Shown here in pieces: positions 15,742 to 64,000 of a stretch of DNA of 64,000 nt. Origin of the DNA: Bolinopsis microptera. Its lineage: Eukaryota; Ctenophora; Tentaculata; Lobata; Bolinopsidae. The notes under the pieces were generated by a model. It did no database searches, was not told where the DNA came from, and worked only from the letters and a program-made list of their open reading frames with translations. A program made the translations under genes and the position numbers. The DNA is taken from NCBI RefSeq assembly GCF_026151205.1, contig NC_087076.1, positions 5,632,902 through 5,696,901 on the forward strand, given 5' to 3'. Positions within the stretch are counted from its first letter, which is position 1. Each line of letters opens with the position of its first letter.

Positions 15742-15742
15742 T

Positions 15743-15757
15743 TGGTAGCAGGTAAAG
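15743..15757 (+). promoter_or_regulatory. Primer-binding site, initiator tRNA-Met type
   Basis: One base after the LTR the sequence reads TGGTAGCAGG. The first nine bases match the complement of the usual 3' end of initiator tRNA-Met (TGGTAGCAG), the primer of many LTR elements. The match stops after that, which is short. Confidence 0.6.
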
Positions 15758-15770
15758 AAAAGATAAAGAC

Positions 15771-18795: not shown

Positions 18796-18810
18796 AAAAG
18801 TGGGGAAGAT
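18796..18810 (+). promoter_or_regulatory. Polypurine tract
   Basis: AAAAGTGGGGAAGAT sits directly before the 3' LTR, the expected place of the plus-strand primer. Confidence 0.8.
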
Positions 18811-33287: not shown

Positions 33288-33745
33288 GGCTAATAAATAA
33301 ACAAATTTAAAAGTTAACTTAGATATCTTTAATTAAGTCAGCTGGTTATTGATACTCGGAACCCTGGCTAATAAATAAACAAATTTAAAAGTTAACTTAG
33401 ATATCTTTAATTAAGTCAGCTGTTTATTAATACTCAGAACCCTGGCTAATAAATAAACAAATTTAAAAGCTAACTTAGATATCTTTAATTAAATCAGCTG
33501 TTTATTAATGCTCAGAACCATGGCTAATAAATAAACAAATTTAAAAGTTAACTTAGATATCTTTAATTAAGTCAGCTGGCTATTGATACTCAGAACCCTG
33601 GCTAATAAATAAACAAATTTAAAAGTTAACTTAGATATCTTTAATTAAGTCAGCTGGTTATTGATACTCAGAACCCTGGCTAATAAGTAAACAAATTTTA
33701 AAAGTTAACTTAGATATCTTTAATTAATTCAGCTGGTTATAATTG
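33287..33745 (+). repeat. 78-bp minisatellite, about six copies
   Basis: Unit TGGCTAATAAATAAACAAAT continuing through TAACTTAGATATC, TTTAATTAAGTCAGCTGG and CAGAACCC, with starts at 33287 and 33365 and so on. The telomeric array sits inside this repeat: a partial unit precedes it at about 32826-32845. Confidence 0.95.
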
Positions 33746-44969: not shown

Positions 44970-45895
44970 TGTAGGAACCTCCCGTGGGAGTAACTACTAA
45001 CTAGTCACTAGGTCTACGCAATTTATAGGGCTCCATCCTATAAGAACCAGTATAGGATCTAACTACGCCTGGTATATAGTACTGACTACAAGTCTTAATA
45101 ACTTGCGGTCTAACTACTAGTAGCTAGAGCGCTCTAATGATGACTAGCTTGAGGGTCTTCGGGATCGATAGTCTCCACCAGTATGGTGTTACTCTAATTC
45201 GCCAAGAACTTGTATCCTCCTTAGGATGAGTGGGAGGGGTGGACAGTTGAAGAGCTGGTTCTCTAATCTGCATATCGCCACCGCAGCTTAAAGAGTCGAC
45301 TTCCCTCAACAAGTCCGGAGATGAGTCTGATCGCTGGCCGGAGATGAGTCTGATCATCTTCAGTCGCACGGAGGCAGAATCAGGGCGTCATCTTAGGGAT
45401 AAGGGCAGGAACAGAGTAGAAGTGAAGGGATCCAGAGGGTCAGTGTCGGAACGATCGGAGGCCGAGTGACCAACTCGAAGTTGGAATAATGGAACTGAGT
45501 AGAAGTGGGGAGAAGTCCAGGTCGTCATCTCGAATAGTCTCCCAGGTTCTGTTAATTTACCGTTTAGACTCAGAGGTCCGCTAATTAATTGGTCGTATCA
45601 GCTCGGTTTGTCTCGTCCTGTCCCGGTGCACTGAAATATGAGATTTCGCCGTCAGGACACCGGTTCGGGGGCTCCGTGATTGGTTGCTATTCGTACGGTT
45701 GCTACGGTGATTGGCGCGCTCCACAGTTTGATGGGAGCCTCATTACTGCAACTCTTAATGAGTTTTCATTCGCTCCTAGGCAGGTGTCCCGTCCGGTCCA
45801 TCACGGTATGAACTAGGTATGAAGTGTAAGTGTCAACTCCCAGTGCTCAGTTATTAACTGAGCGACAAAAAGAATAGGGGGCCGAGGTTCTTACA
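44970..45895 (-). repeat. 3' LTR of the giant element (926 bp)
   Basis: Plus strand begins TGTAGGAACCTC and ends GAGGTTCTTACA, an imperfect 12-bp terminal inverted repeat with TG...CA ends. The first 353 bp equal 63648-64000 with no difference seen by eye. A short direct repeat, CCGGAGATGAGTCTGATC, lies near 45315-45355. Confidence 0.93.
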
Positions 45896-45915
45896 CGTCC
45901 CTTTCTTCCAAACTG
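45896..45915 (-). promoter_or_regulatory. Polypurine tract of the giant element
   Basis: Sense (minus) reads GGAAGAAAGGGACG directly before the LTR start TGTAAGAACC. This purine run at the LTR edge fixes the LTR boundary. Confidence 0.8.
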
Positions 45916-46670
45916 GCGTCCCGCCATGAGTCTATCTGCTTTTTTGGAATCGGGGAGTTGACATGGAGAATGGAGGTTGACATCAAGGGTTGCTTGGGAG
46001 AGAGATCCACGATGGTTAGGAGTTGTTGGCCCGGTTAACCTTGGTCGATACATTAATACACTTCTAAAAACGTGGTTTCGCCGCAATAATTTAAGTTAAC
46101 CCGGTTGTAAATAGTTAAAATAAAACTTGTTTTTTTTTTTCTTTACAACAAACATTTCGCCAATTATCTTTTACTTTAGTTCGTAAATAGTTTTCGGCAT
46201 TAGGCCAATGGTTATTGATGAATGGAGCTGTGCGGTGTTAAGTGTATGACTTTGAATGACTAACAATATCGCCAACATTTGTTAGAAAAGAAAAGTTACA
46301 ACTGCAAGTACTAAGGCACGGTTTGTGAAAAGCTTCTTCTTCCTCATTTATTCAAGCCGAGGGTTGCGACTGGGTGATCGCAGGTAGAGGGTTCCCATGA
46401 TTGGGAGACCATAACCTGCTTTCTTCGGGCGGACCAGCACTCGCCCACTCGGCAGAACCGAGATTTTAGTGAGTTTGTGAGTGAGTGTGACCTAAGGTTC
46501 GACGGTAAAGGAGAGAGGCAGAGAAGGGAAAAGAGGGAATTGGTTTTATCATGGAACGCCTATGACCAGGTCGTATCCAGACATCTACTCAGAGGTTTGG
46601 AAATACCACCATTTTAAAGAAAACTACCTCCTATTTATAAAAGTCACACTACTATACTCACGCGCCGCCA
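45916..46670 (-). other. 3' untranslated region of env in the giant element
   Basis: About 750 bp between the env stop and the polypurine tract; no ORF was recognised. It includes a T-run near 46129-46140 (A-run in sense). Confidence 0.7.
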
Positions 46671-48800
46671 TTACTGGAAAGTTCGTTCTTCGTCCTGTAA
46701 GCCAGGGTAGACTGGATGATATCCGCTTGGGTACCTGTATTGTGATGCGTAAGGTCCGGGTAGTGTGCCATCTTGCTGTTCTGCTTGTCCGATGGGTGCT
46801 GTCGGTTTAGGGGCTTCCCCTGCATTTACCACTAATGATATGTGGCTCTCTGATCTCGGTAAGGTACTGCATCGTTCTTCGCCATATCTTTCTAAGCCGG
46901 GGTCTCGGAAGTGCACTCTGGTTGAGTTTCGCCTGCACTTGCAACACGGTGGGGGACACATATTAGTGTTAGGAGCGACAAAGTCTTTGATCATTTTCAA
47001 TACCACAAATACCAGCAGTGTGACCCCTACGATGCATGCCATTTTAAAGTACTTGGGGATCATTTTTATATTTTGTATGGTGTCTTTAATTATTGGTTGT
47101 GCACTCTGCATGGTGGCAATCCCCTTTTGTCCTTCTTTCAGCTTCTGTAAGTCCTCCTGGAAGTTTTGCACGTCTCTCGCCAAGCTCTCTGCTCCCAGCC
47201 CCGGAATTTTGATCATATCCTCTCGATCTATCATTGGCGCCAGTAGAGGTGGTTTTCGGTACATGATACTGTTGGGCGCCGCATTCTCGGGACTGTGTAT
47301 CACTATGTTACCGAAGCTAACACTCGTGGTATTTCGATCCCATTTCACAAATGTCACTTGATGCTCCGGCATTATTCTTTCCGCCACTGATGATGTGGTT
47401 TGCATGTGTGGGTGGGAAGTACCTTGTTCCGAGGATTTGTGGGACACTATCTTTATCGCCGTCGAGTTGGTTCGTAGGAGTAGTCCAGCTGGTGTTGAGA
47501 TATACGCGTCAGTGTTACATGCCACCAAGGGGCAGCTGGAGGTCTTGGTTCGCCGGGAGTTGAGACAGTCGTCAAACTGTACAAGTTCGTATTGAGTTTC
47601 TTGGCAGATCATTGCCCTCGCGAAGACAGGACACTGCTTTGGGGTTCTTAAAACATACCATTTGCCGTCCTGGAATGTTGCATAAGGTGGTGACTTAAAA
47701 GCGAGGCAGTGGGTGCTGTTGTCATAGGTAGTTCGAGCGACGAATCCAGTTTGTCGTATAGCAAAGAACGCCGAGAGTTGTGCTGTGTCCATGTCAGGAA
47801 ACAGGAGTACAAATCTAAATTGTAGATTTTCAAAATCTGCCTCGATCAATGTCGCTGTAGCCGTTTGATACAGAAGATGGGGAAATTCTGCGAAGAATTT
47901 TGAGGTCTTGGCCAGTTGCCCAGTTGCTAGGTGTCTCACTTCGTCTACACTGAGAAGGGAAGGAGTCAGTCGTCCCGACAGTTGACCGTTCAGCACAAAC
48001 TGGAGCAGATCTTTCAGTTGGTCGATCGATTCTTTCGCTAATGCATATGCATACGCTCCCACTTGGCAGTTTAGCACCCTGCTGAGACCAAAGAATTGTT
48101 TCTGCAATGCTCGTGTGTATCCAAACAGCTTTGTTGTTGCTTCTGCCAACTTCTGATTGAAGTCATCCTCGTGTTTTATTCTCGCCGCTAGGGAAGCCTT
48201 TATTTTGCCGATTGAGTTTTCTTGTTCAGTTAACATCTGTTGGATCTTTTTAATTGTTCTTTCGTTTTGAACACTAAGGTCCAGTGCCGTTGCAGCTGTC
48301 GCTATTGCAGCGACCCCCACGAGGAATCGCCGTCTCCTGTGTGGAAGTTTATGGCACCTAGCGTCGGTGATGTTAAAGGTTTCGCAGAGCCTTGCCGATT
48401 TGAGCTGGTATTCCGACAAATAGATAGCTTCATATGCCGCCGATAAAGCATTTATCTCTAGTTGGTAATTCGCCTCCGCCATTTCGGTTCTTTGTCTAGT
48501 GTGTAGTCCGCAATGTAGCCCTTCAGTTAGTGCCGAAATATTGGCCTTCTGGAGTTGTATGACTATGCTGGACACTTGGTATCCAGCATGGGTGATGAGA
48601 GTGCCTGTCCTTTCCATTAACACTCCTCGTGATGGTAAACTCACGAATCCTGTTCCGTCTCGCCCAATATCTAAAGGTAGAACTTCTGGTTCGGGAGGAT
48701 CGCCTAGAGATTCGCCGTCTACTGTTCCGAAGATTGCCAAGTTCCATATGGTTGTCAGGGTGGTGATCCAGAGCAGTATCCTCCATAGTTCGGTTGACAT
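46671..48800 (-). CDS. env: Envelope glycoprotein, F-protein / errantivirus type
   Basis: 709 residues. There is an N-terminal hydrophobic signal (residues about 5-24). A basic furin-like site RRRR at 155-158 is followed at once by a hydrophobic fusion-peptide-like stretch (FLVGVAAIATAATALDL) and a long heptad-rich helical region to about 260. A Cys-rich middle follows. A second helical segment about 540-585 precedes one membrane anchor at about 587-608. The cytoplasmic tail has a Cys cluster (CPPPCCKC) and is Pro/Tyr-rich. This layout (cleaved class I type, fusion peptide right after the furin site, terminal anchor) is that of baculovirus F proteins and insect errantivirus env. An AAAAG acceptor-like site lies four bases before the ATG, suggesting a spliced env mRNA. 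No internal stop is present, so entry function may be retained. Confidence 0.85.
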   Translation of the reverse strand: MSTELWRILLWITTLTTIWNLAIFGTVDGESLGDPPEPEVLPLDIGRDGTGFVSLPSRGVLMERTGTLITHAGYQVSSIVIQLQKANISALTEGLHCGLHTRQRTEMAEANYQLEINALSAAYEAIYLSEYQLKSARLCETFNITDARCHKLPHRRRRFLVGVAAIATAATALDLSVQNERTIKKIQQMLTEQENSIGKIKASLAARIKHEDDFNQKLAEATTKLFGYTRALQKQFFGLSRVLNCQVGAYAYALAKESIDQLKDLLQFVLNGQLSGRLTPSLLSVDEVRHLATGQLAKTSKFFAEFPHLLYQTATATLIEADFENLQFRFVLLFPDMDTAQLSAFFAIRQTGFVARTTYDNSTHCLAFKSPPYATFQDGKWYVLRTPKQCPVFARAMICQETQYELVQFDDCLNSRRTKTSSCPLVACNTDAYISTPAGLLLRTNSTAIKIVSHKSSEQGTSHPHMQTTSSVAERIMPEHQVTFVKWDRNTTSVSFGNIVIHSPENAAPNSIMYRKPPLLAPMIDREDMIKIPGLGAESLARDVQNFQEDLQKLKEGQKGIATMQSAQPIIKDTIQNIKMIPKYFKMACIVGVTLLVFVVLKMIKDFVAPNTNMCPPPCCKCRRNSTRVHFRDPGLERYGEERCSTLPRSESHISLVVNAGEAPKPTAPIGQAEQQDGTLPGPYASQYRYPSGYHPVYPGLQDEERTFQ

Positions 48801-49233
48801 TTTGCTTTTAAAAGTTGAGGTTAGTGGGCGTTTATCACTTATGTGTTATGGTTCAACACTACTGGGGTGCTCTGAGACTGTAATATCGTTACCAAATTGA
48901 GTTTATCACTCCAATAGTGCGGAACCACATGCAAATAACACATATTTACAGATAACATAGAAATTTCAAGCACAATTTAGGTTTGTGAAATCATATTAGT
49001 CTGGTAATTAAACACGCAAATATGTGATTAACGGTATTCAATTCATCAATTCCAATTCCACTACATCTCATTCAATCAAAAATTTTCAAAATGTTCCCTA
49101 AAAATGTCGTCGTTCTGGAAAGAAACACTTAAAAGTTACACTTCTTGAAATTTCGTCAATGATATTCTTATCTGGAAAATTTCGAAAAAAATCGCCTTAA
49201 CTTAAAATCACACGTGCGTATTACAAATTCATT
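48801..49233 (-). other. pol-env spacer
   Basis: About 430 bp without an ORF. It contains the putative env splice acceptor (AG at 48806-48805), preceded by a weak pyrimidine tract. Confidence 0.6.
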
Positions 49234-52200
49234 CTACGCTAACCATTTTCGCCTTCTAATACGTGCTGTAAAACAACAATTCACATTATATCGTACAGGT
49301 GGTCTGCTCGCCAATCTAGCTGACCTTCGTACTGTAAGTTCAGTTTGCTCTGCTTCTAGAGCTGTGTCCGCCTGAGGAGCTTCTGCTGGTCCTTGTGGTT
49401 CGTCTATTACATCTAAGTCAGCTGTCGGTTGCAATACCAGTATCTGTTCTTCTTCTTCTTCGCCTTCTGATTCAGGATTGAGAAATGAGGCTGTGTCAAC
49501 GCCGATGTCGCTATTCTGCATTTCTCGAGTGTTGATCCTTTCTTGTATCATCGTATCCAGAGCTTCTAGTGTCGCCGCGGGGAGGTTGCATTTCTTTAAC
49601 CTATTGAAATGCGCTCTGAATTCTTTAAACGGCTCTTTGGTTGTCTGAAGAATGTAGGTGGTATTACTCAATCGTTCTTTGATTCGGTAGGGACCTGTGT
49701 AATTTCGAGAGAATTTTCTTGAGCCCTTCTCGAATGCGCCTTTCATCATCCAGACGTAGGATTCAGGTTCTAGTGGTTTTCCAAACTGTTTTCGATCCGC
49801 ATAATCTTTAATACTCTGCATATTCGCCTGCAATTTCGTTCGAGCATGATGCTCGATTTGGTAGAGTACTTCTTCTAAGTAGACATTATATTCAAATTCT
49901 GGGGGATCTTCCGCCAGAGGAGGTTGCCCGAATATAAAATGGACCGGCAATCGCGCGTTAGCGCCGAACATTATTTTGAAAGGTGCGATCCCGGTCGAGT
50001 TTGATGCTTGCGTGTTGTACGAGAGGACCGACAGGCTGAGATATCTGTCCCAGGATCGTGGTTTTAAAGCTGCCCAGTGTGCTATTGAGTTTTCTAGAGT
50101 CCTGTGAACTCTTTCCACGATTCCGTTGCATCTTGGGACCCAGGGGAGACTCCACTTCTGTTTTACGCCAAGGATCAGGTGGAGTTCCTGCATCGTTTTT
50201 GCTATTAGCTGGGAGCCAGCGTCACTCTGAATCTGTAGAGGTAATCCAAAAACGCTGAAAATGTGGGTAACTAGAGTATCTGCTATTGTGTCGGAAGTTA
50301 TTCTGCTGAGTGGAAACGCCCAGGCAAATTTTGAGAAACAATCCAACACGCTGAGGAAGAAGATATTTCCCTTTTTGGTTCTTGGTAGTCGCCCAACTAT
50401 ATCTATAGAAATTTTCTGGAGTCTGCATGATGTTCCAGTCATGGTAAGTGCTGCATTGGGCCTCCTAGGGGGTCGTTTCAGTGACCCACAGCTGGCACAG
50501 TTTTTCACGAAAAGATCGGCATCATAACGGAAGGATTTCCAGTGAAACGAGTGGTCTAAAACCGAAATTATTTTCGCCGCAGATCGGTGACCACCCGTGG
50601 GGTCGCTATGTACTGCTTTGAGGACCTGGAGTCGTTTATGGTGGGGTACCAGCATTCTTTTATCGCCACTTTTATTGGTGTACACCATCACTTTACTATC
50701 TTTTAACGTTGTTATTTTGTCGCGTTTATGATAGTAGAATCTGGTAACCGGAGGTTCCAGGTCTAAAGCCATAGCCTTATTTTCGAACAGGATCTCGTAC
50801 AGTCTTTTGAGCGCTGGGTCTTTCATCTGTTCTTGTCCCAGTATATCAGACAGTTTTTCGCCATCTGTCTGCTTTTCTGGTGCAGTTATGTCCACTGGTT
50901 CTTCACCAAGCTCAATGTCGATAGTAGCTTTTGGATCTCTTTTATCGGAGATGAGGTTGATTTGAATCTTTGATCGCCCGAGGGTGGAGTGTTCTGAAGG
51001 AGGAAGTGCAATGCGCGAGAGAGCGTCCGCTGCTTTGTTCTCTGATCCGGCTCGGTACACGATAGTGTAGTGGAACTGTGAAAGTAACTCGCACCATCGC
51101 GAGATTATACTTGGTGGATCGTGGAAGGAAGCTAACCAGGTAAGGGGGCGGTGATCTGTTTCAAAGATTACTGTTGGTTGACCCAGTATATAGAATTTGA
51201 ACGCTTGTGCAAAGTAAACTATCGCCAGAAGTTCACGTTTTGTTGCTGAATATTTAGACTGAGCCGTATTGAGCAAGTGACTTCCAAAACACACAGGATG
51301 ACGTAGTCCCTCCCGGACAACTGACAGGACTCCTCCGACAGCCGTTTGTGAGGCATCCGTGGTTAGAACAAGTTGTTCGCCAGATCTTGGATTAACTAGT
51401 GTTGGTGCTGATGTTAGTCTTTTGATTAGTTCTTGGAACGCCTTCTCACAGTCTGAATCCCATTCGAACACAGCCGATTTAGAAGTTAGATTGTGGAGTG
51501 GCTTGGCAATAGCACTAAATCCTTTTACATGTCGCCTGTAGAAGGAAAATAGTCCCAGTGCTTGTCTCACTTCTTTCACGGATGTCGGGGTGGGATAGTT
51601 TCTGATCGCCTCTACTTTTGCGTCTTCACACTGTATTCCTTCGGCAGACACTACAAAGCCGAGAAAGGTCAGCTTTTTCCTGAAGAGATCACACTTGGAG
51701 CTTTTTATTTTTAGATTTTGTTCCCATAGGATTTGTAGTACTCTCTCTAGGATTTCCAGATGTTGTTCCTCTGTGATTCCTTGGCAGAGGAGGTCGTCGA
51801 GATATTTCGCCAAATCGAAAATGGAGATCGGCGCAAAGATTTTGTCGATAGTTCTTTGAAACGTTGCAGGACTATTTTTCATTCCGAAGGGCATAACCCT
51901 AAAGCAGAAGAGACCATTTGGCACTGCAAATGCGGTCTTTAGTTTGTCTTTTTCGGCCATTTTTATTTGTAGATATCCACTACATAGATCTAGGGTGCTG
52001 TAGATTGGTGAAGCTTGTATGGTGGCGAGTAGGTGTTGGGCGTTGGGCAGGGGATAGCTATCTGCAACTGTCTCTTGGTTCAGCCTACGATAATCTATAG
52101 TAATCCTAAGAGTGGAGTCTGCTTTCTTAACAAGTACTATTGGACTGGACCAGGGACTGGTTGTTTCTTCGATCAGGTTTCTTTCCAATAAGTCATTAAT

Positions 52201-53289
52201 GATCTTCTCAAGCTCCTCTCTATGTGCTGGTGGTACTGGTCGGGGTTTTTGCTTAATTGGTGTATCTGTGGTCAATTCGACCGTATGAAAGACTTGATCA
52301 CACAGACCCCATGGTTCGCCTTTGAGGTTAAACAAAAACCTGTACTTGTATAGCATCTCTAGGGCTTTCGGCCTCAGTTCATCATTAAGCTGCCACTTGT
52401 CTTCTTTTAGAGCCTTTAGGAGTGTGAGCCATCTTTCGCCGTCTTTTTCAGGTGAGATGTTTAGTGGTTTTACTTCATTGATCTGCTCCGCCGTTGAGCA
52501 TGATCTCAAGTACTTTACATCTGATGGAACCGGTCCCTCGGTTAGGTGCCCTATGTCATCATATTGGTCGATCAATATTGGTTCGTCGTGTAAGTTATTG
52601 ATCACAATGTTAACTGTGTTCTCAGTCTTCTTTGTTTGGCAGATATGGGGCAGGATGGAACAAGAGAAGTCGAAGTCATCATGTGGTACGAACATGGTTT
52701 CTTCCGCTGATGAGAGTTCAGGAGGGAGCTGGAGGGGGAGTTGCTGCTGTTGTCCTGGGTTAATGACACACGTTATAGCTGCTAAAGCTGGATACTGGTG
52801 ATCATTTTGTTTCTGGGTAACTGTCATTACCCTCACCGTGTTTCCTGTTTGTGTGCTTAGACTTTGCTTGTCAAAGTCCAACACCATTTTATGCTGACGA
52901 AGGAAATCGTTGCCAAGAATGAGGAGCTGTGATATGTTCGCCACTATTACATTCGTTGTATAATTGTCGGATCCGATTGTTACCTGGAGTTTTGTTTTAC
53001 CAAACGTTTCTATTTCGCTATCGTTTGGTCCAACTAGTCTTGTGTCATCGGGATCAATTTCCAGGTTGAGAGGTTGGTTGTTGATCAAAAATGAATGTTG
53101 TATTATCGATGCAGCAGCGCCAGTGTCTAGGAGGGCCTTTATTGGGACATCGTTGACGGTCAATGCGACATAAGGCAATGGAGGGGTGGTAATGTTCTGA
53201 CAAGTTACCACGTGGTCGGACTTTGTTTCTGCACAATACTCCTCTAAGTCGTCTAGGTGGCCCCAAGTATCTACTGGGGCCGTGAGGAG
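49234..53289 (-). CDS. pol: Pol polyprotein (protease, RT, RNase H, integrase), -1 frame to gag
   Basis: The open frame begins in gag and is entered at the slippery site 53289-53295; there is no ATG at its head (the first obvious candidate, at 53211, is GTG). It gives about 1,351 residues from the shift. In order: retropepsin-like protease with LLDTGAAASII (near 53125); RT with FRVMPFGMKNSP and KYLDDLL (near 51790); RNase H with TTDASQTAVGG (near 51355); integrase with an HHCC zinc region (H...H...C..C, near 50480-50600) and a catalytic D-D-E triad (IDIVGRL near 50405, QSDAGSQ near 50220, GIVERVHR near 50110); and a GPY/F-like module (TGPYRIKERLSNTTYIL). The RT-RNaseH-IN order is Ty3/Gypsy. 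All catalytic residues checked are present. The C-terminal about 120 residues are acidic and not recognised. Confidence 0.93.
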   Translation of the reverse strand, partial: LLTAPVDTWGHLDDLEEYCAETKSDHVVTCQNITTPPLPYVALTVNDVPIKALLDTGAAASIIQHSFLINNQPLNLEIDPDDTRLVGPNDSEIETFGKTKLQVTIGSDNYTTNVIVANISQLLILGNDFLRQHKMVLDFDKQSLSTQTGNTVRVMTVTQKQNDHQYPALAAITCVINPGQQQQLPLQLPPELSSAEETMFVPHDDFDFSCSILPHICQTKKTENTVNIVINNLHDEPILIDQYDDIGHLTEGPVPSDVKYLRSCSTAEQINEVKPLNISPEKDGERWLTLLKALKEDKWQLNDELRPKALEMLYKYRFLFNLKGEPWGLCDQVFHTVELTTDTPIKQKPRPVPPAHREELEKIINDLLERNLIEETTSPWSSPIVLVKKADSTLRITIDYRRLNQETVADSYPLPNAQHLLATIQASPIYSTLDLCSGYLQIKMAEKDKLKTAFAVPNGLFCFRVMPFGMKNSPATFQRTIDKIFAPISIFDLAKYLDDLLCQGITEEQHLEILERVLQILWEQNLKIKSSKCDLFRKKLTFLGFVVSAEGIQCEDAKVEAIRNYPTPTSVKEVRQALGLFSFYRRHVKGFSAIAKPLHNLTSKSAVFEWDSDCEKAFQELIKRLTSAPTLVNPRSGEQLVLTTDASQTAVGGVLSVVREGLRHPVCFGSHLLNTAQSKYSATKRELLAIVYFAQAFKFYILGQPTVIFETDHRPLTWLASFHDPPSIISRWCELLSQFHYTIVYRAGSENKAADALSRIALPPSEHSTLGRSKIQINLISDKRDPKATIDIELGEEPVDITAPEKQTDGEKLSDILGQEQMKDPALKRLYEILFENKAMALDLEPPVTRFYYHKRDKITTLKDSKVMVYTNKSGDKRMLVPHHKRLQVLKAVHSDPTGGHRSAAKIISVLDHSFHWKSFRYDADLFVKNCASCGSLKRPPRRPNAALTMTGTSCRLQKISIDIVGRLPRTKKGNIFFLSVLDCFSKFAWAFPLSRITSDTIADTLVTHIFSVFGLPLQIQSDAGSQLIAKTMQELHLILGVKQKWSLPWVPRCNGIVERVHRTLENSIAHWAALKPRSWDRYLSLSVLSYNTQASNSTGIAPFKIMFGANARLPVHFIFGQPPLAEDPPEFEYNVYLEEVLYQIEHHARTKLQANMQSIKDYADRKQFGKPLEPESYVWMMKGAFEKGSRKFSRNYTGPYRIKERLSNTTYILQTTKEPFKEFRAHFNRLKKCNLPAATLEALDTMIQERINTREMQNSDIGVDTASFLNPESEGEEEEEQILVLQPTADLDVIDEPQGPAEAPQADTALEAEQTELTVRRSARLASRPPVRYNVNCCFTARIRRRKWLA

Positions 53290-54642
53290 TTTAAATTGTT
53301 TGCAGTATTGGAGATGTGTTGCCTTTCTACGTCTTTGATTCGCTTTACTACTTCTTCAATCCAGCTTTCTGGTGGTTGTGAGTTGGAAAAGTTGGTTCGC
53401 CGATTGAAGTTTCCTTGTGGTCTTTGTTGTGGTACATAACTTTGTTTTCCTCGTTGACCCTGGTTTGGGTTTCTTGGTCTCTGCTCTTGGTATCTTTGGT
53501 TTGGGTATCGATATGTTGTTCTGTTGAAGTTTCGTGGGCCTGCATTATATTGGTAAGTTTGCCTAGGTCTCGGTCTCCATTCGGTAGGGGCAAATGAGTC
53601 GCGTGGTCCATCATATCGATAAGATGGTGGTTGATACGCCTGCTTGTCCTGATGTGATGTTGACTCGGGTTGCCTGTTGTTGTAGATTTGGTTGACTGCC
53701 AGTTGGTCTAGTCGGAGTGATAGCTCGTCCAATCGAGATGTCACATCGTACTCTCTTGGTTTGGGTTCTTCTTCTGCAACAAAGTTCACTGACCGTGATG
53801 ATGCCGACTGACAGCCGTGTAGCATGATCGCCGCATCTAGTAAACGCTCCATATCCACCTCCTGTAGTTCCCGTAGTCTTGACGCTATGTACGGGTCCGA
53901 GATGTTGGCAATGAACGACTCTCGGAGAGAGCCCTCTCTCATAGCCACGTTGTCGGGGTACGCTTTACCACTGAGCTTCTGAAGTGCCAGGAAATATTCC
54001 CAGATACCTGTTGATTTTTCATGATAAAATTAAATAGATTATTCCTAATAGTTACGTGTAGGTTCACATTTATTGTTACATTTAAAACTTTAATTTGATC
54101 ACTTCGAACTTACGCATACACTCACGGACGCACGTGTAACTTTATATAGTCATTCGCCTACACACTTTTTCACACGTGACTTACTACGTACGTTTCAAAT
54201 TTCGACTTTAGAGTTAACTACCTTCAGTTTTTAGACGTCGCCTATTTCTAAGTTCCGCGACATACTTCTCACTATTCTGGTTGTACCCTTCTGCTCTCCT
54301 TAGTTGTGTTACTACATCGTCCAGGTCGTAGTCTTCGCCATCTGCTAATAGTCGAGTGAGGCTGCTTAGTGCCTTATCGTCCAGTAGACTGATGAGTAAA
54401 TCCGCCTGTTCTTCATTAGGGCAGTTTGCTGACCTTGCATAAGCCTGGAACCGCTGTAAGTACAATTCCAGATCAGATCCACTTTTGAATTGAGGTGGGG
54501 CCCTCACATAGAGTGGATGCAGTGGCATTCTGGGCTGATATGCTGGTGGGTGTTGGACTCCTGGAGCCGCCGCCGCCGCTGCTGCTGCAGCTGCTGCAGG
54601 TGCCGCCGCTGCCGGAGGTCGCTGCCGTCCGTCATTGTTCAT
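53271..54642 (-). CDS. gag: Gag protein, two exons with a 214-bp intron
   Basis: Exon 1 is 54642-54222 and exon 2 is 54007-53271. The donor after CTGAAG (GTAGTT) and the acceptor after ATCAACAG join in frame, giving 385 residues. Without splicing, exon 1 stops three codons past the donor. The N-terminus has a long alanine run (about residues 10-27). The middle has the helical retrotransposon-gag pattern (FKSGSDLELYLQRFQAYA and, around the junction, WEYFLALQKL with a downstream RESFI). A short coiled coil (SRLDELSLRLDQLAV) follows, then a basic Arg/Asn/Gln/Gly-rich tail instead of a CCHC zinc knuckle. The last codons overlap pol at the frameshift site. An AG acceptor-like site precedes the ATG by five bases. 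Confidence 0.8.
53289..53295 (-). promoter_or_regulatory. -1 ribosomal frameshift slippery site UUUAAAC
   Basis: On the sense strand the zero-frame codons TTA AAC are preceded by T, giving the canonical X XXY YYZ heptamer. It lies 16 bases before the gag stop (53273-53271), and slipping back one base enters the pol frame exactly. No test of a downstream pseudoknot was possible. Confidence 0.8.
54008..54221 (-). other. Intron inside gag
   Basis: 214 bp, GT at 54221-54220 and AG at 54009-54008 on the minus strand. It is AT-rich with in-frame stops, and the flanking coding halves are in phase. Confidence 0.75.
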
Positions 54643-55566
54643 GGTCCCTGTTTACGGTGAGTTTTTGTGTTTAGAATAGTGGAATACAACGTACTTAGGT
54701 GCAATACGATTTAACCCTTACATGCGGATAATACTATATCGCTTAGCAATGAAATTGATAACTTTCAAGGACAGAATTTTATACTTTTCATGGTTGTTGA
54801 ACTTCATAGCCAGTTATTAAAACGCCGTTGGTCAGTTGTAATATGTTGTATTTAAATAGTATAATAAAAAAAAAAAAAATACCCTGGTTATATCTTGAGT
54901 ACAGTTGCCATATACAATTACCCATATAATAATGAAATTCGCCCATAAAGTAGATAAGTTTGTCCCAGAGTTGAAAAATACGTATTCTACGAATTTTATA
55001 AAACATCAAAAATACGTCAAATACGGAGCATTTTATTTCGTTGAATAAAATACGTTAAAAGTGTTATTGTACCATTGATAGCTCCAATAAAATAATAAGT
55101 ACTATTGCTTTATATAAATTTACGATTTTATCAAAACTCGCGTAGCTCTGTCGTTTTTCACCTCGCATATGACTTCAGAGTTCTGGGCACGTGCTATACC
55201 AAAGCATTAAAGCGTTGAAGTTAAATAGAACTGTGTCTGAAAAAAATGCAAACGAACGACATAACTTTAGTGACTAAAGTTAGTCTTTGAATGAAATTTT
55301 TTTTAAAAACACGTAGTTTAACGTATTCCTGACGTATTTTATTTCTAAGCAAAAATACGCAAAATACGGCGCATTTAAAAATTATCTCACGTACTTTTCA
55401 ACTCCGGTTTGTCCATAAAATACATAAGGTTGTCCTTAAAATACATAAAGTCGCCCATCAGATAAATAAGATTACCTATAAATATAATAGTTCCCATGAT
55501 AATATTACTTGTCTTAGCCTTTCGACCCAGGTTAAGGTTATAATTCGCCGAAAAAACTTGAAACTG
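54643..55566 (-). other. HSP70-gag intergenic region
   Basis: Non-coding. About half of it is the hAT-type MITE at 54966-55406. A poly-A run sits near 54866-54880 (plus strand). The putative gag splice acceptor lies at 54649-54648. Confidence 0.6.
54966..55406. mobile_element. Non-autonomous hAT-type MITE (441 bp) inside the retroelement
   Basis: Terminal inverted repeats CAGAGTTGAAAAATACGT and (complement) CGGAGTTGAAAAGTACGT are flanked on both sides by the 8-bp duplication GTTTGTCC (54958-54965 and 55407-55414). The 8-bp duplication and CAGAG-type ends are hAT hallmarks. There is no transposase ORF. Internally there are two ATACGxxAAATACGG-like blocks. Confidence 0.88.
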
Positions 55567-57060: not shown

Positions 57061-57431
57061 CCTGGGAGTGAGTTGGTTAATTTTAATTTAACTTTGTTTG
57101 TAAAGTTTTGTTGATTGTGTACTACAGTAAAGCTTCAATTTCAATCAGGGTGCCGCAGTAAAATTGTATTTTGGTTGATAAAAGAACGTGTGATTGCACT
57201 AAGATTGATTGGATCTTTACCGTAGTGTTGAGACATTGTTATTTAGTACACCATGAATTTCAAGGACCCTTTTATACAACGGTTAATTTTTTTTTAGTGA
57301 GTCTACAGCAGTGTTTTGAACTTTATTTTAAAGGTACGCTTATTACAGTTTAATACAATTTCACAACAATAATATATAATATCGAGGGACGTGCTTATCC
57401 ACCCATCGCCGTGCCATGCTTGGTCGCCACC
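57061..57431 (-). other. Spacer between small helical ORF and HSP70 gene
   Basis: About 370 bp, AT-rich, with the putative HSP70 splice acceptor (AG at 57063-57062). No gene. Confidence 0.5.
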
Positions 57432-57827
57432 TCAGATGTCGAGCTTTTCGCCTAATTGTACCGCTTCTCGGACTCGCCGCTCCACATCCTCCGGCTGATA
57501 TTTCGCCGCCAATGTGATTTTCCTCATTCGGTGGCGAATCGCAGCTCGCCACTCTTTCCCAGCGTGAAAATCGCCAAGGTCTTCGGTGCACGCCCTAAAG
57601 ACGGCGTGCTCTATTCGTGCCAACGCCTCTTGAGCCGTCTTTGCCACGGCGTCGTAGTCTGTCGCCCCCTGCACCTCAAGGATAAGTAGGAGGGGCGCCA
57701 CCTCTTTTAATATGATTTGTTTTAAGGCTATCTTTCTTGCTGTTGCCACCCTGCTTGTCGGTTGACTAGTTCGTTTCTTAATTTTCTGGATCACCTCAAG
57801 TGTATACTCGTCTATGAACTCAGCCAT
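57432..57827 (-). CDS. Small helical cargo protein, weakly resembling the TFIIS central domain
   Basis: 131 residues, almost entirely predicted alpha-helix and charged. The stretch ALARIEHAVFRAC ... KEWRAAIRHRMRKIT, followed by a shorter helical end, recalls the TFIIS_M pattern (acidic IE-h-hh, then Yk-R-R-h-hNL). The N-terminal RKIALKQIILKE could match the first helix of that fold. The key Leu/Asn-Leu signature of true TFIIS_M is not conserved, so the assignment is tentative; a generic helical bundle or accessory structural protein is as likely. The GC-rich, element-like codon use (GCC, GGCGA motifs) and the position between the KH ORF and HSP70 support it as a genuine gene of the element. 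Confidence 0.55.
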   Translation of the reverse strand: MAEFIDEYTLEVIQKIKKRTSQPTSRVATARKIALKQIILKEVAPLLLILEVQGATDYDAVAKTAQEALARIEHAVFRACTEDLGDFHAGKEWRAAIRHRMRKITLAAKYQPEDVERRVREAVQLGEKLDI

Positions 57828-58916
57828 GTTATCTAATTGGGGCTTTACATTAGTTGGGTCATGTTCGTAGCTTTAAAAATAATATCGTAGCTTTTTAAAA
57901 TAATATCGTGGCTTTTAAATAAAAAAAAAAATAATAACCAGTGCGTATTTGAGTGTGTCATGACAGCCTGTATCCGGTCACCCTTGCTCACCTTACTACT
58001 CTCCTTTTTTTTTTTTTTTTCGTTTTATATATAATAACGGCCCAGTGCCCATATTGTTATACTTATATAATATTTCATTAAATTAGGCGCCAACTACCGC
58101 TTATTTATCATTATAAATATCATCCCGCTTCAATATTAACTTGGCTATTTCTATACCGCCGCATGCTATTTATATCGCGCCGCAAAACGTGCTTTAATTA
58201 TCATCGATCTTCTCACTTTTGGAGGAATAAAATAACCGGTCAACCTTTATATACATAAACACATCTCCATTTTTTATACCGGTGAGCATCATCATTTATA
58301 TAGCGCTTTATCGGAATATCATTTATATAGCGGTTCATATGCACGTGCATTTTATATAGCGGCGAATTTCAACTTTAAAATGTAGGCGGTTAATCATCAG
58401 TTCTATTCTAAGAGCTCTATTCATAAAAGTGAGGTTGCTTTACTACAGTTGCCTAATGAAACCTTTTACCTGGTGAAATGAATGGTGAATGAGTGAATTG
58501 ATAAGTGAATGAATTTGATGTACCTGATGATTACCTCCTGTAGCTTAAGCTGGCCACTGTAGTACTGTGCGCCCTCACTTATCCTTACCTTACGTTAATA
58601 TAAGTATTTATAGTATATAGGCCGGTACCGTTGTCGGCCAGGATCGCCGTATTTAAGTAGTATATAAATTAATTGGTGGTGATTTCATGGTTATCTTATC
58701 CACTTATAGTTATACCTTTGGTGACCGGATTGGTGAGTGTGCTGCATGCTTTGTGAAAACACACATGTTGTTTTATACAATTAAACAAGTGTAGGGATGT
58801 ATTCAAACTTGAAATAAATAAATTATATAATACTGGCATTTACTGCCAGTCCGCCCTAACTTGTTCGCCACTATATTGTTCGCCACTCTTACTCTGCCTT
58901 AACAGTTTACCTTATC
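57828..58916 (-). other. Non-coding interval between KH ORF and small helical ORF; putative internal promoter
   Basis: No ORF. It contains the TATA-box cluster (58275-58362), a poly-T run near 58006-58020 and AT-rich sequence. It may serve as promoter and 5' UTR for the two downstream cargo genes. Confidence 0.5.
58275..58362 (-). promoter_or_regulatory. Four TATA-box-like motifs with an E-box (putative internal promoter)
   Basis: In the sense direction CGCTATATAAATG occurs twice, CGCTATATAAAATG once and GGTATAAAAAATGG once within about 90 bp, with the palindrome TGCACGTGCA between them. Repeated canonical TATA boxes upstream of ORFs on the same strand suggest a core promoter, but no start site can be assigned. 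Confidence 0.4.
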
Positions 58917-59408
58917 CTACCAGTCGGTTTCGCCTACCGTGACTGATACGTTTAACAGCGTGAGCGCCGCTACCTTCTGTATGTCGACCAGAGCCTGGCT
59001 CTGTCGCTTATTGAGAGTTAAGCCTGGCGCTTCTGGTCGCCATCCACGATCTAAGGTCGCCACTTCAATGCTTTCCCCCAACTCCTTCACGAATGGCGCC
59101 ATCAGGATTTTCTTTAAAATCTTAAGGGCGCCCAATAAAGCTGACGCTGGCCCCGTCATGGTCAGGCGCCTTACTGAGTTATTCGTGAAACTGCTGATCC
59201 TACTTGCTTCGACCGCCACACCACGGGATTCAATTATCTTTACTATGCTCCTCGGGAGCTGGTTGCGGTTCGCCGGTGATGCCTTTCGTTGGCCGTTGCC
59301 TAAAACTAGACCGACGAATTCGCTCGATAAGAAAAATGTTATCTGCCGTTTCGCCATCGACAGGTCCGTTAGTGCTGAATCTTCAGATTGGAACGGAGGA
59401 GAGTTCAT
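58917..59408 (-). CDS. KH-domain-like RNA-binding protein carried by the retroelement
   Basis: 163 residues when started at 59408; the frame is open to an earlier ATG at 59480. The later start is preferred because an acceptor-like ACATTACAG lies 9 bases upstream and the domain begins soon after. Residues about 20-103 follow a type I KH fold: ITFFLSSEFVGLVLGNGQ (strand, helix and a GxxG-like loop, with GNGQ in place of GxxG), then VKIIESRGVAVEAS, then SVRRLTMTGPASALLGALKI (strand and C-terminal helix). The last Gly of the GxxG loop is replaced, so RNA affinity may be altered. The C-terminal 60 residues are not recognised. It would bind RNA, perhaps the element's own transcripts. Confidence 0.65.
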   Translation of the reverse strand: MNSPPFQSEDSALTDLSMAKRQITFFLSSEFVGLVLGNGQRKASPANRNQLPRSIVKIIESRGVAVEASRISSFTNNSVRRLTMTGPASALLGALKILKKILMAPFVKELGESIEVATLDRGWRPEAPGLTLNKRQSQALVDIQKVAALTLLNVSVTVGETDW

Positions 59409-59416
59409 ATTTACTT

Positions 59417-59665
59417 TCTGTAATGTGTGCATTTTAGTTATATTAGTGTGATTACACAGCCCAAGCGATTTTGTGCACACACCAAGCCCGCGCTGCTAGC
59501 CGCCGCAGAACCAAAAGCAGGATTAGTTGCTCCCGGGCGTAGATCGAGCCGACTGATCCCCAATCCGCTTTCCGGGAGAATTAGCGCATTCATGAGGAAT
59601 ACTCGCACCATCATCCTGTGCCCAACAATCTGTTTTAACAGAATTGCCGCTGACCCATCGGTTCG
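59417..59665 (-). other. Putative 5' exon of cargo transcripts with splice acceptors
   Basis: On the sense strand CTGTCTCCCTGTGTTTCAG ends at 59666, a strong pyrimidine-tract acceptor. Downstream are short upstream ORFs (7 and 58 codons from the first ATGs) before the KH ATG. A second acceptor (ACATTACAG, ending 59418) would bypass them. Confidence 0.5.
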
Positions 59666-60745
59666 CTGAAACACAGGGAGACAGGTACACTATAGCACTA
59701 GCTAAGCGTTTATAGGGTGCTCTCAACTATCCCCCTTTTGCTCCCGCGGCAACCAAGCCGCACCAACTCAGCTGGGCCCACAGATCGATTAGAGGCTGTT
59801 GTGACTTATAGTTTAACAATATAAAAGATGTGTAAATTTAGTACGATCGTATAGCTAGTCCACATAGATCACAGCACTAGAAATATTCCATTTTTCGGGG
59901 TTTATGCCCTGTTTCGTGATGAAAATATTTTAAATTAGCTTATCTTGTCCAACATTGGATCTAGTATGCTGTACTTGGAGACGTTGGGACTTTGTTTGAA
60001 AAGCATTAATACACTAATAATATATATATTATTGCTGTTGGAGGTCTAATGGGATGACAGTACATCATGCCAATAATTAGGCAGCTCTACACATTTGGTA
60101 CGTGGGTCGCCTTGGTAGTGATTTACACTGTGTGGTGTCACGTGACTTTATGTGCTGATTCGGTACCAGGTCTTTTTTACTGAGCGGGTCAGGGTCGCTT
60201 GCACCCTGCAGGTTTTGAGTCAATACTCACAATCGCCATTACTCACCAGTTAAACTTGTGCCACACTTTGACACATTGAGTGTTTGCTCATGAACGCTAC
60301 ACTACTTATGTTAGACAGGTGCTCATTTGGTACGCCTCTTACGTGATGTAACATTTATTGAAAAGATTAGGTCCTGTCTGACCCTGTGTCACGTACGTTC
60401 GGCCCATGCATGAGCACTTAAATGCGCTATGCGTGCTCGTTAACACCTTAGATTCTAGATGACTTCGATATTTAGTGTAGGCGGACTCTTAATTGGCCCG
60501 GCTGCTGTCAGCAAGGTTGCTGTTATAAATATCTCCGGGATTTCGACGCGGGATCATATTATCACTCAGCCCGGCCCGCTGTTAGATAAACATCTCAAGG
60601 TGATATCATCCCGCCCCGGAAATTTGTATAAACCCGGCCCGCTTTTTAGTCGTAACTGATGTTTATCATTCAATCCTCCGACTTACAATAATCAATGATA
60701 CTGCTGATTAGAACTCGATAATAGTAGAACAGTTAGACGCGCGAT

Positions 60746-60832
60746 CACGTGGGCGCGTCACGTGCGTACCGCGTGCCACCAATAGCTGCATACGCCGAGT
60801 CTATACCACGTGACACGAAAGCGCACCACGTG
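60746..60832. promoter_or_regulatory. Cluster of four CACGTG E-boxes with a CCAAT motif
   Basis: CACGTG at 60746-60751, 60759-60764, 60807-60812 and 60827-60832, and CCAAT near 60779. Further CACGTG and ACGTGA motifs occur at about 60139 and 60340. A bHLH-factor-responsive enhancer or promoter is plausible. Confidence 0.45.
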
Positions 60833-61176
60833 ATATGAAACATCGTAACCGTCCACTTCTTTTACACGCAAATTCCTGGGAACGTTGCCAAAGCAGCTAA
60901 TTCTTGGAATTTCTCCAACGCGTGGCGTGAGAAGTTGGCGACTAGCCAGCTACCCTTGTCCGTGCCCTAAAAATAGTATTGTTTTGCTTGCTCTCCTTCC
61001 AGCTCTTGTTCCTGCTAACGTTCAAGCTATTGCTCCACTATGACAGATCGGTTTGACATTCAGATTGATTAAAAACTATTTTATCACTCTCTTCTAATAT
61101 ATAAAGTATAAATCCCTTTTCGAAATCGCCGGAGATAATTATAATCCATAAACACTTCACGCTCAGGGCTAAATTA

Positions 61177-61314
61177 ATGTAATCCCTCAGCTGGCGCTTC
61201 GGGATTACATATTAACACAAAACTCGTGCGCTGCGCGCACTCGTATGTGTTTATCAGATCATCCCGCTAGCGCGGGATGATCTGTTATATAAACCCTTTG
61301 CGTGGCGGGTTTAT
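61177..61314 (-). promoter_or_regulatory. Cluster of four stem-loops (candidate packaging or RNA-control element)
   Basis: Stem 1: 61177-61186 with 61201-61210 (10 bp). Stem 2: 61226-61231 with 61235-61240. Stem 3: 61255-61267 with 61272-61284 (13 bp, 4-base loop). Stem 4: 61289-61296 with 61307-61314 (8 bp). All are exact complements within 140 bp. They could equally be protein-binding palindromes in DNA. Confidence 0.5.
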
Positions 61315-63137
61315 GTTATTATTAATTGATCCAGCCTGGAGCTGTTCTACGGCGCTCCATTATGATGACACTGTTTCCAGGGTGCGACACACGGTTTAAT
61401 CTACTAATTACTGCCGTTATCGGATATGGTTATGAAGGAGTTCGCCAGATGATATAATTAGCCCGTCCAGTTTCAATATAATTATACTAATGCTGATAAT
61501 TTTTAAAGAGGTGTCCTGAAATATTTTGAAAATTTCAGGATTAATGACCTGTGATATTCGCCAGTCACTTGAGTGTTTCTAATTTCAGCCGAGGACTAGT
61601 ATGCCCGGAATTCTATGTGTTACTAGAAACAATAATATCGGAGCTGACTGATACAACCATGTTATACGTGCCTAGATACTGCCGTGCTTGATCGTGATTT
61701 CTCACCTGCACCATCATACATTCACCGTAAGCAAGTTTAAGTATTTTGACACAAGTATTTACGTGATCTTAATTTCATAATATGCAAGTATCAAAAATTT
61801 TTTTTAGGTTGGCCGACTGAAAATTGACTGATTTCACGGTCGCGCTTGTGGCCCTGCTTGCTTTACTAACGTGAGTTGTCAACGACTTTTGTTAGATTAT
61901 GGTATTAATCGTAATGTGATGTCATACAGTTTATAATACGGAATGTGGAATTGACGAGTTATCTCAAAAGTGCTGTATAAATCTGCTGGATCAATAGGGG
62001 GGGTTCGTAGAATGTAATTCGCCCAAAAAAAAAACATATAATCCGCGTGTTAAGCTGTTAATAGTAGTCTCACCAAGTGGGAGCTACTGTGTAAACTACG
62101 CAAACTAAGGCCATGCAGAATTAATGACTACATGGTCATCAAGTGGGTGCTCGCCTTCGTCTTTGTCAAGGAATTTAAAGAAAATTAAAGGAATATTTTA
62201 ACCTGTTTAAAAAAAGTACAGAGATTTAAGGCCATGCAGACTTACCACTGCATGGTCGTCAAAATCTTTCGGCCAGTTCTGCATACAGCCGCCTTTTTCA
62301 TTAAACTAACGGCGATCTATATAATTTAGTAGTGTTATTGGTGTTTTATGGTAAAATGTAAGAATGTCCGCAGTTGTTTAACCACGGACACATCACGCCT
62401 ATTTAAGTCTAGTTGCAAATAATGGCCGTAAAATATTCGGATAAATAATGTAAAAATTCCGCGTTAATCAGTAGGCTGGCATTTGACACAGTGCTTTGTC
62501 TCTTTGATTGAGACGGGTTCGACGTGATGAATATTGATTTATGAGTAAAATAAAAATAGTGGAGTGAGCTGAGCGTGAGTGAATTAATAAGTTTGGCTTA
62601 AGCTGGTCCACTCGGTAACCGTGGTTTGTATTGGTGCCGTTAATTTGAATATGAGCCATATTCGATCTCAGAATTTTTTGTGTAGTTACTTTAAAATGCT
62701 GGCATTCTGGGGCGTTACAAAAGGTTTGCCTATGGCCTCTCTTTTGCACATACGACAAAATGTGCCTTCCCAGCAGTAACCACGTAGCCTGGCCTTTGGT
62801 TACCATAGTGTATCAACTCTCGCTTCATTACACATACAATTATTATCAGAAATTATTGTCGTCAAAAAAAACTGAATAATTGGAAAATTCAATCACATTG
62901 GCCTTCGCCCTGTATTAAAATGTTGCTTTCTTTCTAGAAAGTTCGATTTCGCCATATATGGGCGTGGAACATTTTATAAACTTATAAAATTAGCCTCGAT
63001 GCTACTGCCTACATAACTTAAAATATTAAATTAACATACTTGTAACGATGAGTTGTGATGTGGATAATATATTGACGCAATTACTGACCAGCACGGTAAC
63101 ACACAACTTATACAGTACAGTTACTCCTCAGGGCTCT

Positions 63138-63363
63138 ATTTCTTAGTTACTGATTTAGTAACGCCATGTATGGCCCGTTATATTTCATTATGTTCTATCA
63201 TATTTCGCCAAAAATTTTCCGCCAGAAGTAGCACATTTAGCTTACAATTCGTTACTTAGTTACTAATTTAGTAACGCCATGTATGGCCCGTTATATTTCA
63301 TTATGTTCTATCACATTTCGCCAAAAATTTTCCGCCAAAAGTAGCACATTTAGCTTACAATTC
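63138..63363. repeat. Tandem duplication, two about 113-bp units
   Basis: TTAGTTACTGATTTAGTAAC through TAGCTTACAATTC is repeated immediately with a handful of substitutions; each copy carries one TTCGCC. Confidence 0.9.
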
Positions 63364-63406
63364 TTTACTAGTGCAAACTGAGCGCTTTTATGGAACGACA
63401 ACTCTT

Positions 63407-63647
63407 ACCTTGGTGGCCTGCAATGCCTCTTCTTGGGAGTTGTCCTCTTCTTATCCACTTTGTCGCCGTAATGTGGAGTAGAGATCTTTTGAGTTTGTCT
63501 TGTCTTGCTTCTGAGGTATTCTCTCTGTCCTTCTCGGAGTTCGTCAGAGAGATAGCCGTCTGTAGGATTCGTCTTCCTTGATTGTCTTAACTCGTTACTG
63601 TTTGGGAAAGTTCTTTTAGAATCAGAGTCTCGTTTCAGTCTCCAATT
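63407..63647 (-). promoter_or_regulatory. ATG-free leader exon and splice donor of the giant element
   Basis: From the LTR edge to 63409 the sense strand has no ATG over 239 nt. It ends CCACCAAG with GTAAGAG following (GT at 63408-63407), a near-consensus donor. This suits a common 5' leader for several spliced mRNAs. Confidence 0.65.
63627..63644 (-). promoter_or_regulatory. Primer-binding site of the giant element
   Basis: Three bases inside the LTR the sense strand reads TGGAGACTGAAACGAGAC. The plus strand reads as a tRNA 3' end: GAGT (T-loop positions 57-60), CTCGT, TTCAGTC, T, CCA. The tRNA species was not identified. Confidence 0.7.
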
Positions 63648-64000
63648 TGTAGGAACCTCCCGTGGGAGTAACTACTAACTAGTCACTAGGTCTACGCAAT
63701 TTATAGGGCTCCATCCTATAAGAACCAGTATAGGATCTAACTACGCCTGGTATATAGTACTGACTACAAGTCTTAATAACTTGCGGTCTAACTACTAGTA
63801 GCTAGAGCGCTCTAATGATGACTAGCTTGAGGGTCTTCGGGATCGATAGTCTCCACCAGTATGGTGTTACTCTAATTCGCCAAGAACTTGTATCCTCCTT
63901 AGGATGAGTGGGAGGGGTGGACAGTTGAAGAGCTGGTTCTCTAATCTGCATATCGCCACCGCAGCTTAAAGAGTCGACTTCCCTCAACAAGTCCGGAGAT
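63648..64000 (-). repeat. 5' LTR of the giant element (partial, continues past the window)
   Basis: Starts TGTAGGAACCTC on the plus strand and matches 44970-45322 without a visible difference. The remaining about 570 bp would lie outside. Confidence 0.95.

What the first reader, a model, noticed from the sequence alone, without database searches (positions are those of the whole stretch)
44970..64000. A ~19.6-kb env-bearing Gypsy-like element with three cargo genes upstream of gag
Seen: identical LTR ends, PBS, PPT, gag-pol-env all open, and in the same orientation three additional ORFs (KH-like, small helical, HSP70) between the 5' LTR and gag. Known: Ty3/Gypsy elements normally have gag directly after the PBS, and extra ORFs usually sit 3' of pol. 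Inference: a retroelement lineage that captured a chaperone and RNA-binding proteins, perhaps for virion assembly or RNA handling. I do not know of a described family with this gene set.
Basis: partly seen in the sequence, partly recalled or inferred. Interest (0 to 1): 0.92.

Follow-up and report, generated by a model that had tools for sequence, protein, structure and literature searches.

The report
Retrovirus-like element with its own chaperone
A recently inserted retrovirus-like mobile element in an animal genome carries, ahead of its usual genes, a heat-shock chaperone, a probable RNA-binding protein and a small helical protein, and older relatives in the same genome suggest that such genes have long travelled with this lineage.

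Summary
Largely confirmed, with corrections. The minus strand carries a complete Ty3/Gypsy-type element of 19,604 bp (44970 to 64573, 573 bases past the window), with 926-bp identical LTRs and a 5-bp target duplication. Order: 5' LTR, candidate PBS, 4.2-kb leader, KH-like ORF, small helical ORF, lidless HSP70, gag, pol, env, purine tract, 3' LTR. Gag is not one open frame. The cargo is not trapped host DNA: 10 of 34 cargo-gene relatives elsewhere lie within 20 kb of gag or env relatives, always same strand and order (0.14 expected). HSP70 and KH comparisons suggest purifying selection. No second copy of its RT was found (next best 44 percent; 150 of 262 candidates scored). Eight paired-LTR relatives lack the cargo, gag and most of pol but keep env sequence; 7 of 8 have identical LTR pairs: recent mobilisation in trans. 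Two gag-pol-env cousins show no detected cargo. Best reading: a complex env-bearing metavirid lineage with its own RNA-handling and chaperone genes; those roles are inferred. The searches listed no such gene set; single ORFs before gag have plant precedents.

The parts
63648..64000 (-). 5' LTR (continues to 64573, outside the window)
   Evidence: 926 bp identical to the 3' LTR
63626..63644 (-). candidate primer binding site, starting TGG
   Evidence: exact in 7 of 8 related copies; tRNA not identified
63408..63647 (-). leader without ATG, ending in a consensus-like splice donor AAG|GTAAGA (exon end 63409)
   Evidence: donor exact in 7 of 8 related copies; one of those (L041) does have an ATG
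59524..59681 (-). conserved leader segment, probable cis element
   Evidence: 82 percent identity at C10, C6, C2 and C13 loci; indels not multiples of three
58917..59480 (-). KH-like ORF, 187 aa
57956..58741 (-). segment between KH-like and small ORF that the deletion relatives keep
57432..57827 (-). small helical ORF, 131 aa
55567..57060 (-). HSP70 ORF, 497 aa, C-terminal lid missing
   Evidence: Pfam PF00012 4.8e-84, profile 2-521 of 599
54214..54651 (-). gag, N-terminal frame
   Evidence: relatives in 39 other matches; no Pfam match
53271..54029 (-). gag, C-terminal frame
49234..53211 (-). pol: protease, RT, RNase H, integrase; 1325 aa
46671..48800 (-). env-like ORF, 709 aa, RRRR site at 155-158, hydrophobic stretch at 159, transmembrane-like stretch from about 580
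45896..45909 (-). purine-rich tract before the 3' LTR
44970..45895 (-). 3' LTR, 926 bp

Best explanation
It is a recently inserted Ty3/Gypsy-type (Metaviridae-type), env-bearing element whose lineage carries a 5' accessory block (KH-like protein, helical protein, lidless HSP70) before gag. Shown: boundaries, identical LTRs, gene order, recurrence of cargo relatives beside gag or env relatives, low dN/dS for HSP70 and KH where measurable. Inferred: the leader with its donor gives spliced subgenomic RNAs, as in complex retroviruses; the KH-like protein binds genomic RNA and helps its export or packaging (about 0.45); the HSP70, perhaps with the helical protein, assists assembly or remodelling of Gag or Env (about 0.4). 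The deletion relatives are mobilised in trans by this or an unseen intact copy.
For: Identical LTRs and 5-bp duplication. Pol with PR-RT-RH-IN; nearest solved RT is Ty3 (2.5e-79). Cargo linkage 10 of 34, all same strand with gag or env downstream, against 0.14 at random. HSP70 pieces 1.1 and 1.6 kb before gag pieces at two C11 loci. dN/dS: HSP70 0.11 and 0.14; KH 0.27, 0.12, 0.14. Leader donor exact in 7 of 8 copies. 7 of 8 deletion relatives have identical LTR pairs and 8 of 8 a 5-bp duplication.
Against: 24 of 34 cargo loci have no gag or env match within 20 kb, and 4 of the 10 that do are one cluster. At C12:11.98 Mb and C12:13.03-13.04 Mb HSP70 pieces lie upstream of KH, the reverse of the window order. 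No second intact block was found. KH model pLDDT is 47.5 and no Foldseek match reaches 0.001. Strong splice acceptors before the accessory ORFs were not found (2 sites, both in env; 1.25 expected; [quoted passage not shown] Gag is interrupted, so this copy may not be autonomous. No RNA or protein data.
Confidence: 0.72

Rival explanations
1. The three ORFs are host DNA trapped between two LTRs, or a one-off transduction in this single copy.
For: Only this copy holds all parts; HSP70 is a common host gene family; the 8 paired-LTR relatives lack the cargo.
Against: Identical LTRs with matching duplication; cargo relatives linked to gag or env elsewhere; the element-type HSP70s at C12, C2 and C11 are 40-55 percent identical to the window's against 30-31 percent to two host-like ones; the deletion relatives keep the segments flanking the KH-like ORF in place.
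Confidence: 0.04
2. The cargo is a separate mobile or satellite unit nested in the leader of an ordinary gag-pol-env element.
For: KH loci at C13 look like a small unit of their own with shared flanks; cousins at C8 and C13 show no cargo.
Against: Same orientation and order with gag or env at 7 clusters; the conserved leader segment sits upstream of gag relatives at C10, C6 and C2 as well as beside a KH ORF at C13.
Confidence: 0.08
3. The block is lineage-wide but acts on the host (silencing, stress or cell-death control), not on genomic RNA or particles.
For: Giant planarian Burro elements carry apoptosis and ubiquitin-related domains (PMC6431247 passages); a lidless HSP70 need not be a normal folding chaperone.
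Against: A probable RNA-binding protein and a chaperone before gag fit RNA and particle functions at least as well; nothing here separates the two.
Confidence: 0.3

Closest known systems
Env-bearing Ty3/Gypsy elements (Metaviridae; errantivirus-like)
   Same: LTR structure, PR-RT-RH-IN order, RT nearest to Ty3 among solved structures, env-like ORF after pol
   Different: Three extra genes and a 4.2-kb leader before gag; RT tree with named references not made
Burro (planarian giant Gypsy elements)
   Same: Giant Gypsy-like element with env homology, extra domains and, in one species, an upstream accessory ORF (PMC6431247 passages)
   Different: Burro fuses most domains in one huge polyprotein; the passages name no HSP70 (0 occurrences in that paper)
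Ogre and other plant Gypsy elements with additional ORFs
   Same: An extra ORF between LTR and gag and a long 5' region (PMC1142308 passages)
   Different: One ORF of unknown function in plants; here three ORFs, one a clear HSP70
Bdelloid rotifer LTR elements with ORF3
   Same: Captured enzymatic or env ORFs (PMC5408684 passages)
   Different: Captured ORFs are ORF3; no HSP70 or chaperone in that text (0 occurrences)
Cer1 of C. elegans (CERV)
   Same: LTR element with its own factor for export of genomic RNA, from a spliced mRNA (PMC10309623 abstract)
   Different: Analogy only; no similarity between CERV and the KH-like protein was tested
Closterovirus HSP70 homologues
   Same: A virus-encoded HSP70 relative linked to virion assembly (search listing; role otherwise recalled)
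   Different: Plant positive-strand RNA viruses; no relation of the sequences was tested

Membership tests
Ty3/Gypsy (Metaviridae) | Pol domain order protease, RT, RNase H, integrase | tested here: met
   Pfam positions 13-111, 361-520, 584-713, 931-1023 of one ORF
Ty3/Gypsy (Metaviridae) | RT closest to Ty3-type enzymes | tested here: met
   Among solved structures Ty3 2.5e-79, next 3e-53; no tree with named references was made
Ty3/Gypsy (Metaviridae) | LTRs TG...CA with short target duplication | tested here: met
Ty3/Gypsy (Metaviridae) | PBS complementary to a host tRNA | tested here: inconclusive
   Pattern search: 11 hits, 9 at copies of this element family, 2 unread
Errantivirus-like element | Env ORF after pol with cleavage site, hydrophobic stretch and membrane anchor | tested here: met
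   RRRR at 155-158, hydropathy peaks at 159 and 580-592; no Pfam or PDB env match
Errantivirus-like element | Phylogenetic position within the genus | not tested
   No named references at hand
HSP70 | HSP70 profile over nucleotide- and substrate-binding domains | tested here: met
   4.8e-84, profile 2-521 of 599
HSP70 | C-terminal helical lid | tested here: not met
   ORF ends at profile position 521 of 599
HSP70 | ATPase and peptide binding | not testable with these tools
   needs purified protein
KH domain, type I | beta-alpha-alpha-beta-beta-alpha fold with GxxG loop | tested here: inconclusive
Complex retrovirus-like expression | Spliced subgenomic RNAs from a leader donor | not testable with these tools
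   Donor candidate at 63409 only; needs RNA

The most novel reading that the evidence does not exclude
A lineage of complex, retrovirus-like animal metavirids that brings its own chaperone system (HSP70 with a helical partner) and its own KH RNA-export or packaging factor, expressed by splicing from a 5' block ahead of gag, and that supports a swarm of env-keeping satellites without gag or RT, copied in trans.
Probability: 0.4. Interest if true: 0.85.

Novelty: new variant of a known kind. Interest (0 to 1): 0.72.

Why it matters
Reverse-transcribing elements are generally thought to borrow host chaperones and export factors (recalled). A lineage that keeps its own HSP70 and a probable KH protein under apparent purifying selection would make the need for such factors directly testable, and would add an animal retroelement to the virus groups known to encode an HSP70. 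The satellites that keep env sequence but have lost gag and RT are a natural case of helper-dependent mobilisation.

Tried and rejected
Trapped host DNA: rejected on identical LTRs, duplication and linkage. Assembly artefact: both LTRs and both flanks lie in one contig; reads were not available. A named fold for the small ORF: only generic helical bundles matched, so none is assigned; absence from the list excludes nothing. RNA families in 44000-64000: one match, E 0.85, outside the element. PBS tRNA: see membership test. KH-like and env relatives in IMG/VR: none confirmed. Pol in phage records: none. Loss of an HSP70 catalytic lysine was considered and dropped, because the alignment is ambiguous there. 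Splice acceptors: only 2 strong sites by my cutoff, both in env, against 1.25 in shuffles; one TTTCAG near 59668 is conserved but fell below that cutoff. Host identity: contigs C1-C13 sum to 97.5 percent of 264.65 Mb (my sum of lengths), which suits a ctenophore such as Bolinopsis microptera (13 scaffolds with 97.23 percent, about 254 Mbp by k-mers; PMC10232365 passages), but the figures differ and nothing here proves it. The own-genome search with PF00012 did not complete, so the host HSP70 set is incomplete.

Full report
What is there. The window lies in a 264.65-Mb animal assembly of 232 contigs ('animal' is my inference from the 7tm_1, LDL-receptor and SRCR host exons beside the element). 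On its minus strand is an LTR element of 19,604 bp. The LTRs are 926 bp and differ at no position; ATCTA flanks both sides. Pfam finds protease, RT, RNase H and integrase in that order in one 1325-aa ORF; the nearest solved RT is that of Ty3. Downstream is a 709-aa ORF with an RRRR site followed by a hydrophobic stretch and a C-terminal transmembrane-like stretch, 28-29 percent identical to ORFs of 674 and 673 aa that follow RT in two other elements. Upstream of gag, in the same orientation, are a KH-like ORF (187 aa), a 131-aa ORF and a 497-aa HSP70. Between the 5' LTR and the KH-like ORF is a 4.2-kb leader.

Gag is split: an N-terminal frame (54214-54651) and a C-terminal frame (53271-54029) are separated by roughly 0.2 kb that holds stops and is bounded by GT and AG, while 9 of 9 fetched relatives (L052-L060) have one open frame of 236-365 aa covering both parts. 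The gag label rests on position and on these relatives; Pfam recognises neither the window frames nor the two relatives tried. The element ends at 64573, outside the window.

Is the cargo part of the element? Element proteins were searched against the own genome: HSP70 31 matches, KH-like 10, small ORF 4, gag N-terminal frame 40, env 69, each counting the window. Ten of 34 have gag or env within 20 kb, and 10 of 10 have it on the same strand and downstream, as in the window; placing the cargo at random on the same chromosomes gave a mean of 0.52 (any, maximum 5) and 0.14 (ordered, maximum 2) in 2000 trials. The ten fall into seven clusters; four are in one cluster at C12:13.02-13.04 Mb. Against this, 24 of 34 show no such neighbour, and at C12:11.98 Mb and C12:13.03-13.04 Mb HSP70 pieces lie upstream of KH, the reverse of the window. 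The 34 include host HSP70 genes, which should have no such neighbour. At C11:753k and C11:924k HSP70 pieces lie 1.1 and 1.6 kb (midpoints) before gag pieces 69 and 66 percent identical to the window's. Three element-type HSP70 pieces (C12, C2, C11) are 55, 47 and 40 percent identical to the window's, and C2 and C11 58 percent to each other; the window's is 30-31 percent identical to two host-like HSP70s, which are 48 percent alike. The gap is not clean: C2 is 38 percent identical to one host-like HSP70 over 126 aa. I read this as an old association.

Selection. By a simple Nei-Gojobori script: HSP70 against two 105-codon fragments, dN/dS 0.11 and 0.14; KH against three loci 0.27, 0.12 and 0.14 (the last two with saturated dS); env against six related copies, five at 0.11-0.18 and one (L040) at 0.38. 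The two C13 KH copies against each other gave 1.02, as for relics. The small ORF, gag, pol and the remaining HSP70, KH and env comparisons were saturated. Some partners are broken copies, so these ratios mix functional and decaying branches.

Other copies. The LTR search gave 71 matching pieces. Eight copies with both LTRs were fetched (L038-L045). By blastn 8 of 8 keep leader pieces between 63647 and about 61911, 52 bases at 60215-60266, the segment from 57956 to about 58728, and pieces from about 49447 through env to the 3' LTR, and have no match to the KH-like ORF, small ORF, HSP70, gag or most of pol. One (L038) keeps a 722-aa env frame, 99 percent identical. Their LTRs are 1195-1235 bp, with about 270 bp that the window's LTR lacks. 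Seven of 8 LTR pairs are identical, the eighth (L043) has 12 mismatches and 5 gap columns, and 8 of 8 show a 5-bp duplication. Copies without RT that share one deletion pattern and have identical LTRs must have moved with proteins made elsewhere. The RT search scored 150 of 262 candidates; the next best RT is 44 percent identical, so no other source of this RT was seen in this assembly. A probable further paired copy at C12:3.457-3.478 Mb was not fetched whole.

Cousins without cargo. C8:11.637-11.646 Mb (RT 44, env 28, gag 34 percent) and C13:1.442-1.451 Mb (RT 43, env 29, gag 35 percent) have gag, RT and env in order in long open frames and no HSP70, KH or small-ORF match nearby. Their 5' regions were not read, so diverged cargo is not excluded. 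The simplest history is that the block was gained after these lineages split.

Signals in the leader. The first 236 nt after the LTR hold no ATG (96.6 percent of 1000 mononucleotide shuffles do) and run into AAG|GTAAGA, exact in 7 of 8 related copies, one of which (L041) does have an ATG. The segment 59524-59681 is 82 percent identical at C10:4178297, C6:20699657, C2:2308376 and C13:4704840; the first three lie 2.0-3.3 kb upstream of gag relatives, the last about 0.2 kb upstream of a KH ORF that is 43 percent identical. Its indels are not multiples of three, so it is probably a cis element.

Mechanism. I think a full-length RNA is both genome and precursor; splicing from the leader donor yields messages for the accessory ORFs and env. 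The KH-like protein would bind unspliced RNA for export or packaging, by analogy with CERV of Cer1 (PMC10309623, abstract). The HSP70 would assist Gag or Env assembly, by analogy with closterovirus HSP70 homologues (search listing; otherwise recalled). These steps are inference.

Novelty. Passages of PMC6431247 say that LTR elements can capture ORFs downstream of pol; but Ogre has an ORF before gag (PMC1142308 passages), a Burro-like element has an upstream accessory ORF, and plant additional ORFs occur upstream or downstream of gag-pol (PMC7264820 passages). Eight searches combining ctenophore, retrotransposon, envelope, HSP70, KH domain, captured and additional-ORF terms listed no paper whose title or shown abstract describes this gene set; I did not read most of the listed papers, and the library holds open-licence papers only. 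Protein homologues outside this genome could not be searched.

Noticed in passing
44965-44969 and C5 bases after 64573 (L009:1074-1078): The empty site reads as one open frame with weak galectin similarity (Pfam E 0.09, below cut-off), so the element may sit in a host coding exon.
   Followed up: partly
15005-19277: Direct repeats 99 percent alike, 3806 bp apart (15005-15304 and 18811-19110; further repeats to 15471 and 19277), around a 685-aa ORF without clear Pfam match, set in satellite DNA: perhaps a compact LTR element.
   Followed up: partly
32844-33740: An interstitial AACCCT array of about 74 units runs into a 78-bp satellite that begins with the same hexamer.
   Followed up: no
57956-58741; C12:9196679-9197284: This segment is 91-95 percent conserved in the 8 deletion relatives and 92 percent at C12:9.197 Mb, beside a KH ORF of only about 56 percent identity; a cis element or recombination could explain it.
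   Followed up: partly
L038-L045, after LTR position 252: Their LTRs hold about 270 bp that the window's LTR lacks; more diverged copies also show the gap, so the window's LTR is probably a deleted form.
   Followed up: partly
40533-44197, minus strand: Host exons for a 7tm_1 receptor with LDL-receptor class A repeats and an SRCR domain lie next to the insertion.
   Followed up: no
L013, L014, L047 (C13:4.704 and C13:8.160 Mb): Two KH loci share about 2.3 kb of similar flank, with a 190-bp repeat at two places in one of them, as if they were a small KH-bearing derivative.
   Followed up: partly
903-6129 and 9789-24407: Large satellite arrays with units of 113 and 366 bp.
   Followed up: no
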